Below, one piece after another: positions 42,874-47,209 of a stretch of DNA of 64,000 bases; the stretch's first letter is position 1; every line of letters begins with the position of its first letter. Location: assembly GCF_009708215.1 (NCBI RefSeq), contig NZ_CP046175.1, forward strand, positions 1,426,001-1,490,000. Reading direction: 5' to 3'. Made by a program: the position numbers and the translations under genes. The notes beneath the pieces were generated by a model. The model searched no databases, was not told where the DNA came from, and saw nothing but the letters and a program-made list of their open reading frames with translations. The DNA is from Occultella kanbiaonis. Its GTDB lineage: Bacteria > Actinomycetota > Actinomycetes > Actinomycetales > Beutenbergiaceae.

Positions 42874-43006
42874 GACCCCATCGTCTCAGCGCCCGGAGAG
42901 TATGCGAAACTTCCCAGAGGGCTCGTGCGTTGTGAAGTGTGTGAGCACGCCGTCCAACGCTGTGCCCGCGCTCGCCGTCCTGACCTAAGCCCCTGAGGTG
43001 TCACTC

Positions 43007-46003
43007 GTGTCATTCGCTGCCAGTCGTTCCGCCCGCTCGAGCGGGGGGCGCCGCCAACGTGGCGTGTTGCTGCCAACCCTGCTGGTCCTGGTCGGGGTGG
43101 TGGTCGCCTTCCTGATCCTGGCCCGGTTCTGGACCGAGTGGCTCTGGTTCGACCAGGTGGGCTACAGCGAGGTGATCCGGACCGAATGGGTCACCCGGGC
43201 GCTGATGTTCATCGCCGGTGGCGTGGTCATGGGCGGTGCGATCTGGCTGAACCTGTACCTCGCCTACCGGCACCGTCCGATGTACGTGCCGACCACCCAG
43301 CAGCAGCAGGACCTGGACCGGTACCGGGAGGCGTTCGAGCCGCTGCGCCGGATCGCGTTCATCGGCGGCCCGATCCTGGCCGGCTTCTTCGCAGGCTCCG
43401 CGGCGAGCACGCAGTGGCAGACCGCACTCCTGGCCCTCAACGGTCAGGAGTGGGGAACCACGGACCCCCAGTTCGGGATCGACCTGTCCTTCTACATGTT
43501 CACGCTGCCGTTCCTGCGGTTCATCGTCTCGTTCCTGATGACGACGACGTTCTTCTGCGCGGTCGCGGCCGTGTTCACCCACTACCTCTACGGCGCGCTT
43601 CAGCCGATGGGCCGCGGCGAGAAGATCTCCCGACCGGCCCGGATCCACGTGGCGATCCTGGCCGCCGTGTTCACGCTGCTGATCGCCATCAACTACTGGC
43701 TGGACCGGTACTCGCTGCTGTCCAACGACGGTGACCGCTTCAGCGGGGCGTCCTACACCGACATCAACGCGGTGCTGCCCGCGAAGGCGATCCTCGCCGT
43801 CATCGGAGTCTTCGTCGCGGTGCTGTTCATCTACACCGGGGTCCGCGGGAACTGGCGACTGCCCGCCGTGGGGGTCTCCCTCATGGTGGTCTCGGCCATC
43901 CTCGTGGGCGGGATCTACCCGGCGATCATCCAGGGGGTGCGCGTCGGGCCGAACGAGCAGGCGCTCGAGGCCACCTATATCCAGCGCAATATCAATGCGA
44001 CCAGGGAGGCGTACGGGCTCACCGACGTCCAGGTGCAGCCCTACAGTGCGGAGACCGTGGCCGAGGCCGGGGCTTTGCGCGAGGACGCGGAGTCGACGGC
44101 GAGCATCCGGCTGCTCGACCCCCAGGAGGTCTCGCCGACCTTCCGCCAGCTCCAGCAGAACAAGCAGTACTACAACTTCCCGGCGACCCTCTCGGTGGAC
44201 CGGTACACGATCGACGGGCAGAGCCAGGACACCGTGATCGCGGTGCGCGACCTGGACCTGGCGGGGGCCGGGCAGAGCAACTGGGTCAACGACCACACGG
44301 TGTTCACCCACGGGTTCGGGGTCGTGGCCGCGTACGGCAACACGGTCACCTCGGACGGTCGGCCGGCGTTCTTCGAGAGCGGGATCCCGAGCACCGGCAT
44401 CTTCGGCGACACCTACGAACCGCGCATCTACTTCAGCCCGAACTCGCCGGAGTACTCGATCGTAGGGGCGCCGGAGGGCACCCCGCCGTGGGAGCTCGAC
44501 TACCCGGACGACAGCGCGCCGAACGGTCAGGTGAACAACACGTTCACCGGCGACGGCGGCCCGTCGATCGGCAACATCTGGAACCAGGCCCTGTACGCGG
44601 CCAGGTTCGGCAGCGAGCAGATCCTGTTCTCCGACCGGGTCACCTCCGAGTCCCAGATCCTCTACAACCGGGACCCGCTGGAGCGGGTCGCCCGGGTGGC
44701 TCCGTTCCTGACCCTGGAAGGGTCCACCTACCCGGCCGTGGTGGACACCGACGACGACGGGATGAAGGAGGTCGTCTGGGTCGTCGATGCCTACACCACC
44801 TCCAACGAGTACCCCTACTCGGCCCGCCAGGAGCTCGAGTCCGCGATCACCGACTCGCTGACCGAGTCCGGTGAGGTGCCGGTCGCGGCCCTTCCGGACT
44901 ACATCAACTACATCCGCAACTCGGTCAAGGCGGTCGTGGACGCCTACGACGGCTCCGTGACGCTGTACGCGTGGGACCCGGAGGACCCGATCCTGGCCAC
45001 CTGGGACGCCATCTTCCCGGGCAAGATCCAGCCGATCTCCGAGATCAGCGGTGACCTGATGAGCCACCTGCGCTACCCCGAGGACATGTTCAAGGTGCAG
45101 CGTGAACTGCTCACCCAGTACCACGTCACCGACGCCGAGAGCTTCTTCACGACGGCCGACTTCTGGCGGGTCCCGAACGACCCGACTTCGGACGCAGAGG
45201 TTCCGCAGCCGCCGTACTACCTGACCCTGGCGCTGCCGGAGCAGGACCAGGCCTCGTTCTCGTTGACCACGTCCTTCATCGTCGACGACGACACCAGGAA
45301 CGTCCTCACAGGTTTCCTGGCGGTGAATGCCGAGCCCGGGAACACCCCGGGGGAGGTCGCGGAGGACTACGGCACGTTGACCCTGCTCGAGCTCCCACGG
45401 GACGAGACCGTCCCGGGACCGGGTCAGGTACAGGGCAACTTCGACTCGGATGCCGCCGCGGCGAACGAATTGAACATCCTCGGCCGCGGAGGCTCGGAGG
45501 TGATCCAGGGCAACCTGCTCACCCTGCCCGTCGGTGGCGGTGTGCTCTACGTCCAGCCCGTCTACGTGCAGTCCTCGGGCGGCACCCAGTACCCGCTGCT
45601 GCGGCGCGTGCTCGTCGCGTTCGGTGACGAGGTGGGCTTCGCGCAGACCCTCGACCAGGCGCTCGACCAGGTGTTCGAAGGTGACTCCGGTGCGAACGCC
45701 GGGGATGCCGACGTCGATCCGACCCCCGACGAGGGGACCGGAACCGGCGGCGGCGAGGGAACCGAGACCCCGGACGTCGACGCCCAGCAGCGCCTGAACG
45801 ACGCGCTGGCGGCGGCCGGTGCCGCGCTCACGGCCTCCGACGAGGCGCTCGCCAGCGGCGACTGGGCCGCGTACGGCGAGGCCCAGACGCAGCTGGAGGA
45901 GGCGATCGCGGACGCGATGGCCGCCGAGCAGGAGCTCGCCGGCGCAGCCCCCGCCGATGATGGGGCCACCGAGGAGCCGACCGACACCGCGACCACGGGC
46001 TGA
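43007..46003 (+). CDS. UPF0182 family large membrane protein
   Basis: A 998-residue membrane protein of the UPF0182 family (Rv3193c in M. tuberculosis). Seven transmembrane helices occupy the first 310 residues or so (for example LLPTLLVLVGVVVAFLILAR and VAILAAVFTLLIAINYWL), with the typical FWTEWLWFDQVGY between helices 1 and 2. A large extracytoplasmic domain of about 600 residues follows (EATYIQRNINATREAYGL, EPRIYFSPNSPEYSIV, DPEDPILATWDAIFPG). The acidic, Ala-rich tail (about 905-998) is low complexity. GTG 43007 has TGAGG at an 8-base spacing; GTG 42998 is an alternative. The function is unknown. Confidence 0.92.
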   Translation: MSFAASRSARSSGGRRQRGVLLPTLLVLVGVVVAFLILARFWTEWLWFDQVGYSEVIRTEWVTRALMFIAGGVVMGGAIWLNLYLAYRHRPMYVPTTQQQQDLDRYREAFEPLRRIAFIGGPILAGFFAGSAASTQWQTALLALNGQEWGTTDPQFGIDLSFYMFTLPFLRFIVSFLMTTTFFCAVAAVFTHYLYGALQPMGRGEKISRPARIHVAILAAVFTLLIAINYWLDRYSLLSNDGDRFSGASYTDINAVLPAKAILAVIGVFVAVLFIYTGVRGNWRLPAVGVSLMVVSAILVGGIYPAIIQGVRVGPNEQALEATYIQRNINATREAYGLTDVQVQPYSAETVAEAGALREDAESTASIRLLDPQEVSPTFRQLQQNKQYYNFPATLSVDRYTIDGQSQDTVIAVRDLDLAGAGQSNWVNDHTVFTHGFGVVAAYGNTVTSDGRPAFFESGIPSTGIFGDTYEPRIYFSPNSPEYSIVGAPEGTPPWELDYPDDSAPNGQVNNTFTGDGGPSIGNIWNQALYAARFGSEQILFSDRVTSESQILYNRDPLERVARVAPFLTLEGSTYPAVVDTDDDGMKEVVWVVDAYTTSNEYPYSARQELESAITDSLTESGEVPVAALPDYINYIRNSVKAVVDAYDGSVTLYAWDPEDPILATWDAIFPGKIQPISEISGDLMSHLRYPEDMFKVQRELLTQYHVTDAESFFTTADFWRVPNDPTSDAEVPQPPYYLTLALPEQDQASFSLTTSFIVDDDTRNVLTGFLAVNAEPGNTPGEVAEDYGTLTLLELPRDETVPGPGQVQGNFDSDAAAANELNILGRGGSEVIQGNLLTLPVGGGVLYVQPVYVQSSGGTQYPLLRRVLVAFGDEVGFAQTLDQALDQVFEGDSGANAGDADVDPTPDEGTGTGGGEGTETPDVDAQQRLNDALAAAGAALTASDEALASGDWAAYGEAQTQLEEAIADAMAAEQELAGAAPADDGATEEPTDTATTG

Positions 46004-46090: not shown

Positions 46091-46164
46091 CGCGGGGTGG
46101 AGCAGTTCGGTAGCTCGCCGGGCTCATAACCCGGAGGTCGCGGGTTCAAATCCCGCCCCCGCCA
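46091..46164 (+). tRNA. Initiator tRNA-fMet (CAT)
   Basis: A 74-base cloverleaf without encoded CCA: acceptor CGCGGGG/CCCCGCC, D arm GAGC/GCTC, anticodon arm with loop CTCATAA (anticodon CAT), and T arm GCGGG-TTCAAAT-CCCGC. Two initiator hallmarks are present: the 1:72 position is unpaired (C:C) and the anticodon stem ends in three consecutive G-C pairs (GGG/CCC). Confidence 0.95.
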
Positions 46165-46169
46165 CAAAT

Positions 46170-46207
46170 CCTTCAGGCCCGGAATCCACGGATTCCGGGC
46201 CTGAAGG
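46170..46207 (+). terminator. Terminator after tRNA-fMet
   Basis: An 18-bp perfect stem with a 2-base loop (arm starts CCTTCAGGCCCGG and ends GGGCCTGAAGG), 5 bases after the tRNA and followed by CATTTC. Strong intrinsic terminator for the tRNA. Confidence 0.8.
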
Positions 46208-46258: not shown

Positions 46259-46264
46259 CATACT
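46259..46264 (+). promoter_or_regulatory. -10-like element before the hen1 remnant
   Basis: CATACT ends 6 bases before GTG 46271, the leaderless arrangement seen elsewhere in the window. The promoter of the lost RNA-repair operon thus seems to be retained. Confidence 0.4.
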
Positions 46265-46270
46265 GAGCGC

Positions 46271-46392
46271 GTGCTCCTGACCCTGACGACCACGCACCAG
46301 CCGGCCACAGATCTCGGTTACCTGCTGCACAAGCACCCCGACCGGGTGCAGGAGTTCAAGCAGTCGTTCGGCACGGCCACGGTCTTCTACCC
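46271..46392 (+). pseudogene. hen1: hen1 remnant: N-terminal ~41 codons of the 3'-terminal RNA ribose 2'-O-methyltransferase
   Basis: From GTG 46271 the frame reads VLLTLTTTHQPATDLGYLLH, then KHPDRVQEF and FGTATVFYP. This is the characteristic N-terminus of bacterial Hen1, which 2'-O-methylates the 3' end of damaged RNA in partnership with Pnkp. In an intact gene the frame would continue for several hundred residues to the methyltransferase domain. Here it stops matching exactly after FYP (about 46391-46393), where sequence matching the C-terminus of Pnkp begins in another frame. The remaining frame to 46645 is out-of-frame read-through. The gene is not functional. Confidence 0.82.
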
Positions 46393-46605
46393 CTGCGGAT
46401 CATCTACGGCCCGGACTACACGGACTCGCTGGATCTCCTTCGTGAGCGCCACCTCGGGAAGGAGCGTCAGCTCGCCGTCCGGGAGCACGGGCTGGGCCTC
46501 GACGCGCTCACGGCGTTCGTCGAACACGATCCGCTCTGGAAGGTGCACCAGTCGGTGTTCGGGGTCCTCGCGCTCGAGTCCGAGCCGGTCGACCCGCGGC
46601 TGTGA
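46393..46605 (+). pseudogene. pnkp: pnkp remnant: C-terminal 70 codons of polynucleotide kinase-phosphatase-ligase
   Basis: In the frame starting CTG 46393 the sequence reads LRIIYGPDYT, then LRERHLGKERQLAVREHGLG and VHQSVFGVLALESEPVDPRL, and stops at TGA 46603-46605. This matches the C-terminal end of actinobacterial Pnkp, the kinase-phosphatase-ligase encoded after hen1. The kinase, phosphatase and most of the ligase domain are missing. It is joined directly to the hen1 N-terminus but in a different frame, so a single deletion removed most of both genes. The surviving sequence is still well preserved, which suggests a recent loss. Confidence 0.8.
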
Positions 46606-46663: not shown

Positions 46664-47209
46664 ATGGAAACCTGGCAATTCATCGGCATCGCGCTGCTCG
46701 TCATCGCGCTGCTCGCGTCCCCGCTCTGGAAAGGGCTCCTCACCAGCCGGGCGCAGAGGGCCGGGGAGAACGCCGGCAGAGCGTTCGCAGCCAAGCGGCT
46801 CCCGACGGCGTTGGACGCGCTGTCGACCACGCTGGACCTGCGGACGGACGCCGGCACGGCCACCGAGGTGATCAACGCGGCCGTGGCGGCCAAGCCGAAG
46901 AAGGCGGCGGCGGCCGGTCCCGGGCAGTGGTACGTGACCTTCGCCGATCGCGACGACATCCACGTCCGGCTGACCGGCGTGCCCGGAGGGGTGCGGCTCG
47001 CAGTCGTCAAGACCATCGAGTTCCAGGAGTTCCCGCAGGGTGGCGGGGACTGGGCGAAGTTCCGCGAGCGGGTCGTGGCGGCCGCGCAGGCGCGTGGTGT
47101 CGCGACCACCCAGGGTGCGTCGCCGCACCTGCAGCGGATCGCCGACCCGTCCGGCAGGGAGACGCTCGGCGGCGCGCGCGCGAGTATCTGGGTCGCTTCG
47201 GTCGCCTAG
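46664..47209 (+). CDS. Uncharacterised protein with N-terminal membrane anchor
   Basis: A 181-residue protein with one N-terminal transmembrane helix (WQFIGIALLVIALLASPLW) and a soluble domain of about 150 residues. The visible pattern is a helical region (ALDALSTTLDLRTDAGTATEVINAAVAAKPKK), then a strand-rich part (WYVTFADRDDIHVRLTGVPGGVRLAVVKTIEF) and a final amphipathic helix. I do not recognise the family. ATG 46664 has GGAG 5-6 bases upstream. It follows the hen1/pnkp scar by 58 bases and ends before a hairpin at 47228-47268. Nothing suggests a partner. Confidence 0.75.
   Translation: METWQFIGIALLVIALLASPLWKGLLTSRAQRAGENAGRAFAAKRLPTALDALSTTLDLRTDAGTATEVINAAVAAKPKKAAAAGPGQWYVTFADRDDIHVRLTGVPGGVRLAVVKTIEFQEFPQGGGDWAKFRERVVAAAQARGVATTQGASPHLQRIADPSGRETLGGARASIWVASVA

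What the first reader, a model, noticed from the sequence alone, without database searches (positions are those of the whole stretch)
46259..46605. Deletion scar joining the 5' end of hen1 to the 3' end of pnkp: a lost RNA-repair cassette
Seen in sequence: 41 codons reading VLLTLTTTHQPATDLG...FGTATVFYP match the start of Hen1, and directly after them, in another frame, 70 codons LRIIYGPDYT...LALESEPVDPRL match the end of Pnkp. A -10-like CATACT remains in front. Known: Hen1 and Pnkp form an RNA repair and 2'-O-methyl end-protection system, with hen1 directly upstream of pnkp. Inference: one internal deletion of several kb (most of both genes) fused them; the well-kept flanks imply a recent event. 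Closely related strains may still carry the intact cassette beside the initiator tRNA.
Basis: partly seen in the sequence, partly recalled or inferred. Interest (0 to 1): 0.82.

Follow-up and report, generated by a model that had tools for sequence, protein, structure and literature searches.

The report
Deleted RNA-repair gene pair, scar left
Just behind a tRNA gene this bacterium keeps the first 41 codons of one RNA-repair gene fused out of frame to the last 70 codons of its partner, the remains of a two-gene repair cassette that lost about nine tenths of its length, most likely in one deletion.

Summary
Window 46271-46393 encodes the first 41 residues of bacterial Hen1; 46393-46605, in another frame, encodes the last 70 of bacterial Pnkp. 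Both pass Pfam's cut-offs, and both have the same nearest DNA relative, Nocardioides sp. 503. Against three relatives, 3.56-3.59 kb (about 91%) is missing, joined at a 2-base overlap (CC). The searches found no other copy in this single-contig genome. The remnants show no excess of amino-acid changes, so the deletion looks young. It is a pseudogene scar, an ordinary outcome.

One expectation failed: the three congeners held have an empty site, not an intact cassette. Another genus of the family (G021) has the cassette at the same UPF0182-tRNA site, with pnkp frameshifted.

The survey gave a lead. In 7 of 57 hen1-bearing genomes of the order, hen1 starts within 200 bases behind this tRNA-Met gene. 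A second scar lies behind one too (G148). On a Hen1 tree the tRNA-Met label changes at least three times, though gains and losses cannot be told apart. Whether the place has a functional meaning is open. Raw reads could not be examined.

The parts
42998..46003 (+). UPF0182 protein, conserved left neighbour of the tRNA
   Evidence: Pfam PF03699 2.4e-279; found within 1.5 kb of this tRNA in 23 of 24 family genomes (G005 gave no match)
46091..46165 (+). tRNA-Met (cat); initiator by its sequence and place (inference and recall; ARAGORN says only Met)
   Evidence: a match in 24 of 24 family genomes
46170..46207 (+). terminator-like hairpin of the tRNA gene
   Evidence: sequence, fold; a long hairpin stands between tRNA and hen1 in all 8 sequences folded there, this one included
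46259..46264 (+). -10-like CATACT, 6 bases before the hen1 start; suggests a leaderless promoter (inference)
   Evidence: CANACT 6-7 bases before the start in 10 of 19 relatives printed
46271..46393 (+). hen1 remnant, codons 1-41 of about 465
   Evidence: Hen1_L 1.6e-19; TIGR04074 model 1-46, 2.9e-17 in the whole-genome search
46392..46393 (+). deletion junction: the two bases CC fit both the hen1 side and the pnkp side
   Evidence: comparison with 13 hen1 and 14 pnkp relatives
46393..46605 (+). pnkp remnant, last 70 codons and stop, other frame than hen1
   Evidence: PNKP_ligase 5e-25; TIGR04075 model 779-851, 1.8e-28 in the whole-genome search
46664..47209 (+). next gene, protein without Pfam or NCBIfam match at 0.01; marks the right end of the occupied site
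   Evidence: 92% and 82% identical in G001 and G003, only residues 141-181 in G002; matches of 38-39% in G012, G019, G021

Best explanation
A bacterial RNA-repair cassette, hen1-pnkp with its own short promoter, stood between the initiator tRNA gene and the next chromosomal gene. One deletion of about 3.6 kb removed hen1 from codon 42 on and all but the last 70 codons of pnkp, and joined the ends at two shared bases, as end joining could (two Ku homologues are present). Both enzymes are lost: Hen1 loses most of its ligase-associating region and all of its methyltransferase part, and Pnkp loses kinase, phosphatase and most of its ligase domain. Translation from the old start runs out of frame at the junction and ends as a 124-codon reading frame. 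Shown: the two gene ends, their order, the missing middle. Inferred: a single event, end joining, and that the cassette entered this lineage after it split from the sequenced congeners and was disabled soon after.
For: Both halves match the right ends of the right genes, in the right order and strand. In the ungapped sets both have the same nearest DNA relative, L118, at 87.8% and 87.1%. L118, L106 and L115 keep 3589, 3561 and 3586 bases between the two points. The rest of both genes was not found in the genome. Mean dN of the window against its 12 nearest relatives is no higher than among those relatives: 0.084 against 0.119 for hen1, 0.112 against 0.118 for pnkp. It breaks 0 of 4 invariant hen1 columns and 1 of 27 invariant pnkp columns. 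Two Ku homologues are in the genome. The empty site in G001, G002 and G003 points to arrival in this lineage. The cassette can be mobile: 18 of 72,556 plasmid records carry a match to the Pnkp end, the best 71% identical.
Against: No raw reads and no second strain of the species. A 2-base overlap is near what chance gives and does not prove end joining. At protein level the two halves have different best matches: hen1 L117 and L123 (90%), pnkp L115 (89%). The order of gain and loss is not settled: the tree with scar and G021 as one clade had the higher likelihood and is not rejected (p 0.62), so older presence in the family with repeated loss remains possible. The lineage could also have received the scar ready-made from an unsampled relative.
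Confidence: 0.9

Rival explanations
1. Assembly artefact: the genome really holds the full operon and the assembler dropped 3.6 kb.
For: No reads were available; structural calls from one assembly can be errors.
Against: The genome is one contig, completeness 100 by the tool's figure. In L118, L106 and L115 the longest words shared within 40 bases of both break points are 6, 7 and 6 bases, too short to collapse on. The flanks run on as in G001.
Confidence: 0.05
2. The cassette was ancestral at this site in the family and was lost many times; the window keeps the only visible scar in its genus.
For: G021, another genus of the same family, has it at the same site between homologues of the same neighbours. 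Scar plus G021 as one clade is not rejected and had the higher likelihood. For hen1, G021 is the second nearest by DNA.
Against: No remnant was found in 3 of 3 congeners and no TIGR04075 match at 1e-12 in the 7 other genomes of G021's genus, so many clean losses are needed. For pnkp, G021 is among the last of the 12 nearest (77.6%, against 87.1% for L118).
Confidence: 0.25
3. The remnant has been kept for a use of its own, as a short peptide or as a regulatory stretch behind the tRNA.
For: Both halves look constrained and the promoter-like site is present.
Against: The constraint is explained by recent loss. The join is out of frame, so no Hen1-Pnkp fusion is made. The three congeners do without it.
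Confidence: 0.03
4. Two separate fragments arrived independently and happen to lie together.
For: At protein level the best matches of the two halves differ.
Against: Order and strand match the operon, the two ends abut without a gap, and by DNA both have the same nearest relative.
Confidence: 0.01

Closest known systems
Bacterial Pnkp-Hen1 RNA repair operon (NCBIfam TIGR04074 / TIGR04075)
   Same: Same genes, same order and strand; hen1 first, pnkp second
   Different: About 91% of the cassette is missing; no domain is whole; out of frame
Cassette of genome G021 (L106)
   Same: Same family, same site: UPF0182, tRNA-Met, hen1, pnkp
   Different: hen1 reads through; pnkp is cut into three frames
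Cassette of Nocardioides sp. 503 (L118)
   Same: Nearest DNA relative of both halves; also behind UPF0182 and tRNA-Met
   Different: Both genes open; a 1666-residue DUF5724/DUF4132 protein lies between tRNA and hen1
Scar in genome G148 (L247, L303)
   Same: Remnant of pnkp close behind a tRNA-Met-like sequence and its hairpin
   Different: No hen1 match and nothing of the first 286 pnkp model positions; the rest lies in one open frame of 415 codons with two further internal gaps
Pnkp1-Rnl-Hen1 complex (PMC4411300, passages seen)
   Same: Related RNA repair function, includes Hen1
   Different: The two partner genes form an operon far away from hen1

Membership tests
Bacterial Hen1 (TIGR04074) | N-terminal Hen1_L segment | tested here: met
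   PF12623 positions 1-41 of 242, 70.4 bits against cut-off 23
Bacterial Hen1 (TIGR04074) | Whole-protein score over the curated cut-off, with the rest of the protein | tested here: not met
   65.1 bits against 340; nothing beyond codon 41
Bacterial Pnkp (TIGR04075) | C-terminal end of the ligase domain | tested here: met
   PF16542 positions 311-377 of 377, 89 bits against 28.2
Bacterial Pnkp (TIGR04075) | Whole protein; score over 750 bits | tested here: not met
   103.6 bits, model 780-851 only
Hen1-Pnkp operon | hen1 directly upstream of pnkp on one strand | tested here: met
   Order and strand kept in the remnants; same layout in relatives
Hen1-Pnkp operon | RNA repair activity | not testable with these tools
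   Nearly all of both proteins is absent, so activity is not expected
Integrative element at a tRNA gene | Repeat of the tRNA 3' end at the far side of the insert | tested here: not met
   The 24-base tRNA end occurs once in the window, up to 3 mismatches; a shorter repeat was not looked for

The most novel reading that the evidence does not exclude
The place behind the initiator tRNA gene is a preferred home of the Hen1-Pnkp cassette for a functional reason: the repair enzymes are kept beside, and perhaps regulated with, an RNA that they save (initiator tRNA cut by ribotoxins), and lineages gain and lose the pair there as ribotoxin pressure changes. The window would be one frozen moment of that turnover.
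Probability: 0.12. Interest if true: 0.65.

Novelty: new member of a known kind. Interest (0 to 1): 0.33.

Why it matters
As a scar it is a clear example of how an accessory RNA-repair system is lost: one cut that leaves both gene ends. The in vivo RNA substrates of these repair complexes are said to be unknown (PMC4411300, passages). Finding the cassette close behind the initiator tRNA gene in several genomes, in more than one Hen1 branch and in decayed forms, gives a concrete place to look for a target and for gain and loss.

Tried and rejected
Other copies of hen1 or pnkp in the genome: none found. Attachment-site repeat: the 24-base tRNA end occurs once in the window. Long direct repeats that would explain the deletion by slippage: longest shared words near both break points are 6-7 bases, on L118 alone, shows 20 of 23 repeat families. 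TACC occurs near the join on both sides in most relatives, but joining there would leave two bases fewer than observed, so the exact overlap is CC. Phage source: no match to the Pnkp end in 50,697 phage records at 1e-5; however, a jumbo-phage paper (PMC5852040, listing only) holds the words Hen1 and Pnkp, so other phage forms may exist. Placing the scar on a tree: 111 residues put it in a starred 12-row group with Nocardioidaceae, Phycicoccus, Gordonia, G021 and others (97/91), but its sister is not resolved.

VapC as the ribotoxin behind an initiator-tRNA link: papers listed (8 of 244; titles and abstract starts) include VapC acting on the initiator tRNA. From recall, VapC leaves ends unlike those that Pnkp-Hen1 repairs, so this was not used as support.

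Rows dropped or chosen: one search used only ungapped, stop-free loci (51 hen1 and 23 pnkp rows, from up to 90 loci). One search kept 78 of 89 loci (L162 and L172 left out as deletion forms, others lacking one end). One search used 57 order loci and 25 of the 80 named loci, chosen by me; L120 dropped, 81 of 82 kept; its 9 labelled rows include two looser cases (L112 at 1.2 kb, L118 with a gene between) and leave out L259 (tRNA-Met at 4.3 kb, no UPF0182 match). One search covered 57 of the 60 hen1-matching order genomes plus G148; the window, G033 (contig edge) and G180 (fragment) were not included. One search was capped: the best 80 of 429 relatives, so the nearest relative named is the nearest of those.

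Full report
WHAT IS THERE. Behind the tRNA-Met gene at 46091-46165 lie a hairpin (46170-46207), a -10-like CATACT (46259-46264), a GTG start at 46271, 41 codons of Hen1, and, in another frame without any gap, the last 70 codons of Pnkp up to the stop at 46603-46605. Pfam names both ends with scores well over its cut-offs; NCBIfam names the same two families, below whole-protein cut-offs as remnants must be. In genome-wide searches these are the only clear hen1 and pnkp matches in this 5.65-Mb single contig; one further hit to the later part of the Hen1 model is weak (20.2 bits, 3.5e-4).

THE DELETION. BLASTN of the region against 59 genomes (the window's own included) breaks at 46392/46393, with the two pieces about 3.6 kb further apart in relatives that hold both. 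On the hen1 side the 13 relatives read TAC or TAT, CCN, then GAG, GAA or GAT; on the pnkp side the 14 relatives read GAG, TAC or TAT, then a Leu codon (CTG in most). The window reads TAC CCC TG CGG, so two bases, CC, fit both sides. Cut at the same points, L118, L106 and L115 would lose 3589, 3561 and 3586 bases, about 91% of a 3.9-kb cassette. No long word joins the two places. Two Ku homologues in the genome make end joining possible; that step is inferred.

AGE. Against its 12 nearest relatives the remnant has a mean dN of 0.084 (hen1) and 0.112 (pnkp); those relatives among themselves have 0.119 and 0.118 (66 pairs each). It breaks 0 of 4 invariant hen1 columns and 1 of 27 invariant pnkp columns. 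It has therefore probably not drifted long as a pseudogene; with 111 codons the test is weak. Both halves are nearest to L118 at DNA level, 87.8% and 87.1%, which fits one cassette; at protein level the best matches are L117 and L123 for hen1 and L115 for pnkp.

RELATIVES AT THE SAME SITE. A UPF0182 match lies beside this tRNA in 23 of 24 family genomes. In the congeners G001 and G003 the tRNA is followed by an inverted repeat and then the 46664 gene; in G002 only the last part of that gene remains; none has a match to the scar. In the family, 4 of 24 genomes have a Pnkp match: G000, G021, G011 and G015. G021 has the cassette at the same site between homologues of the same neighbours, hen1 reading through and pnkp in three frames. 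In G011 and G015 the cassette lies far from the UPF0182-tRNA-Met place and no homologue of the window's genes was found beside it. Recent gain by the window's lineage followed by loss is the shortest account. Old presence with many losses is not excluded: scar plus G021 as a clade has p 0.62, with a log-likelihood 4.53 higher than the free tree.

SURVEY OF THE ORDER. Of 396 genomes, 74 match TIGR04075 at 1e-12; 11 of these show only the front part of the model at 130 bits or less (G039, G137, G163, G176, G177, G231, G251, G314, G332, G358, G394), leaving 63. Hen1 matches at 1e-10 in 60 of 396. Lesions are visible in 7 of the 63: G000, G021, G055, G069, G148, G180 and G391. Frameshift and stop calls may be sequencing errors, and G180 is 77% complete. 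G183 and G196 show only the later part of pnkp and no hen1; they may end at contig edges and were not counted. Of 90 loci examined (80 named, 10 from genome handles), 80 have both genes open; the other 10 are lesions, contig edges or partial matches. By the window is the only one of the 396 in which a hen1 start and a pnkp end alone remain. A Parachlamydiales MAG (L162) has a similar but in-frame fusion.

THE INITIATOR-tRNA NEIGHBOURHOOD. I took the hen1 upstream DNA of 57 of the 60 hen1-matching genomes. In 7 of 57, tRNA-Met lies 84-198 bases upstream on the same strand: G021, and six genomes of one genus of another family, G068, G187, G135, G174, G096 and G122. UPF0182 lies before it, within 0.7 kb in six and 2.2 kb in G122, where a first tRNA-Met copy lies 2.0 kb upstream. 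Five of those six genomes have two or three tRNA-Met copies. G036 of the same genus has two copies, the nearer at 1.2 kb, with the contig starting there. G111 has a tRNA-Met at 4.3 kb without UPF0182. In 46 of the 57 no tRNA was found upstream in the stretch held; two have other tRNAs, G040 a tRNA-Ser at 191 bases and G011 a tRNA-Lys at 3.5 kb on the other strand. For 6 of the 57 less than 4 kb was available. G148, again of that genus, has UPF0182, a tRNA-Met, about 1.7 kb, a second tRNA-Met-like sequence (its first half reads N) with hairpin, and then mid-pnkp, with no hen1: a second scar. Nocardioides sp. 503 has UPF0182, tRNA-Met, a DUF5724/DUF4132 protein, then the cassette. Among the 89 loci, nine of which are also, 9 hold any tRNA and 3 hold tRNA-Met, so the association is a minority. 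On a Hen1 tree of 81 rows the label of 9 tRNA-Met rows needs 4 changes, at least 3 by starred branches; the method cannot tell gains from losses. Counting only direct neighbours, it is one clade (the six genomes) and G021. In all 8 sequences folded a strong hairpin stands between tRNA and hen1, so read-through from the tRNA is not obvious. The plainest reading is a permissive insertion place next to a tRNA gene.

FUNCTION LOST. According to PMC4411300 (passages only), Pnkp-Hen1 repairs ribotoxin-cut RNA and methylates the 2'-OH so that the repaired RNA resists the same ribotoxin; the two genes are said to be always in the same operon; in vivo substrates remain unknown. The window's genome keeps one RtcB homologue, as do two of the three congeners, so another RNA ligase is present and is no response to this loss.

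LITERATURE. In (12 of 12 listed; 10 of 27; 2 of 2; 10 of 161; 1 of 1) no listed paper, by title or abstract start, describes decay of this operon or its place beside the initiator tRNA. Only passages of PMC4411300 were read; the rest were seen as listings. The library lacks most subscription journals, so this is no proof that nothing is in print.

VERDICT. A real and probably young deletion scar of a known RNA-repair cassette; ordinary as a pseudogene. No call names the organism; from base composition and relatives it is an actinobacterium (inference).

Noticed in passing
L247 4557-5867 (genome G148): A tRNA-Met-like sequence (first half masked) and its hairpin stand close before mid-pnkp; no hen1 match, 286 model positions gone, the rest in one open frame with two further internal gaps.
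   Followed up: partly
L257, L269, L270, L284, L286, L287: Six genomes of one genus carry hen1 84-121 bases behind tRNA-Met with UPF0182 upstream, five of them with two or three tRNA-Met copies.
   Followed up: partly
L162 1702-2520 (Parachlamydiales MAG): Hen1 start (about 160 codons) fused in frame to the Pnkp end, another internal-deletion form of the pair.
   Followed up: partly
L172 6055-7088 (Planctomycetota MAG): Hen1 codon 41 joined out of frame to about codon 181: same left break point as in the window, perhaps coincidence.
   Followed up: partly
L120 1-470 (Serinicoccus): Front part of hen1 missing; in its place what reads like an IS3-type transposase end at the contig start (label from recall).
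   Followed up: no
L104 (genome G002): In this congener the stretch after the tRNA hairpin runs, within about 100 bases, into the last part (from about residue 141) of the 46664 gene: a different deletion at the same site.
   Followed up: partly
L199 1575-1800 (genome G017): The tRNA-Met 3' end and its hairpin are repeated about 120 bases downstream, like a duplicated attachment site.
   Followed up: no
window 46664-47209: Protein without Pfam or NCBIfam match; 92% and 82% identical in two congeners, 38-39% matches in G012, G019, G021, and weak second matches in the own genome and G001.
   Followed up: no
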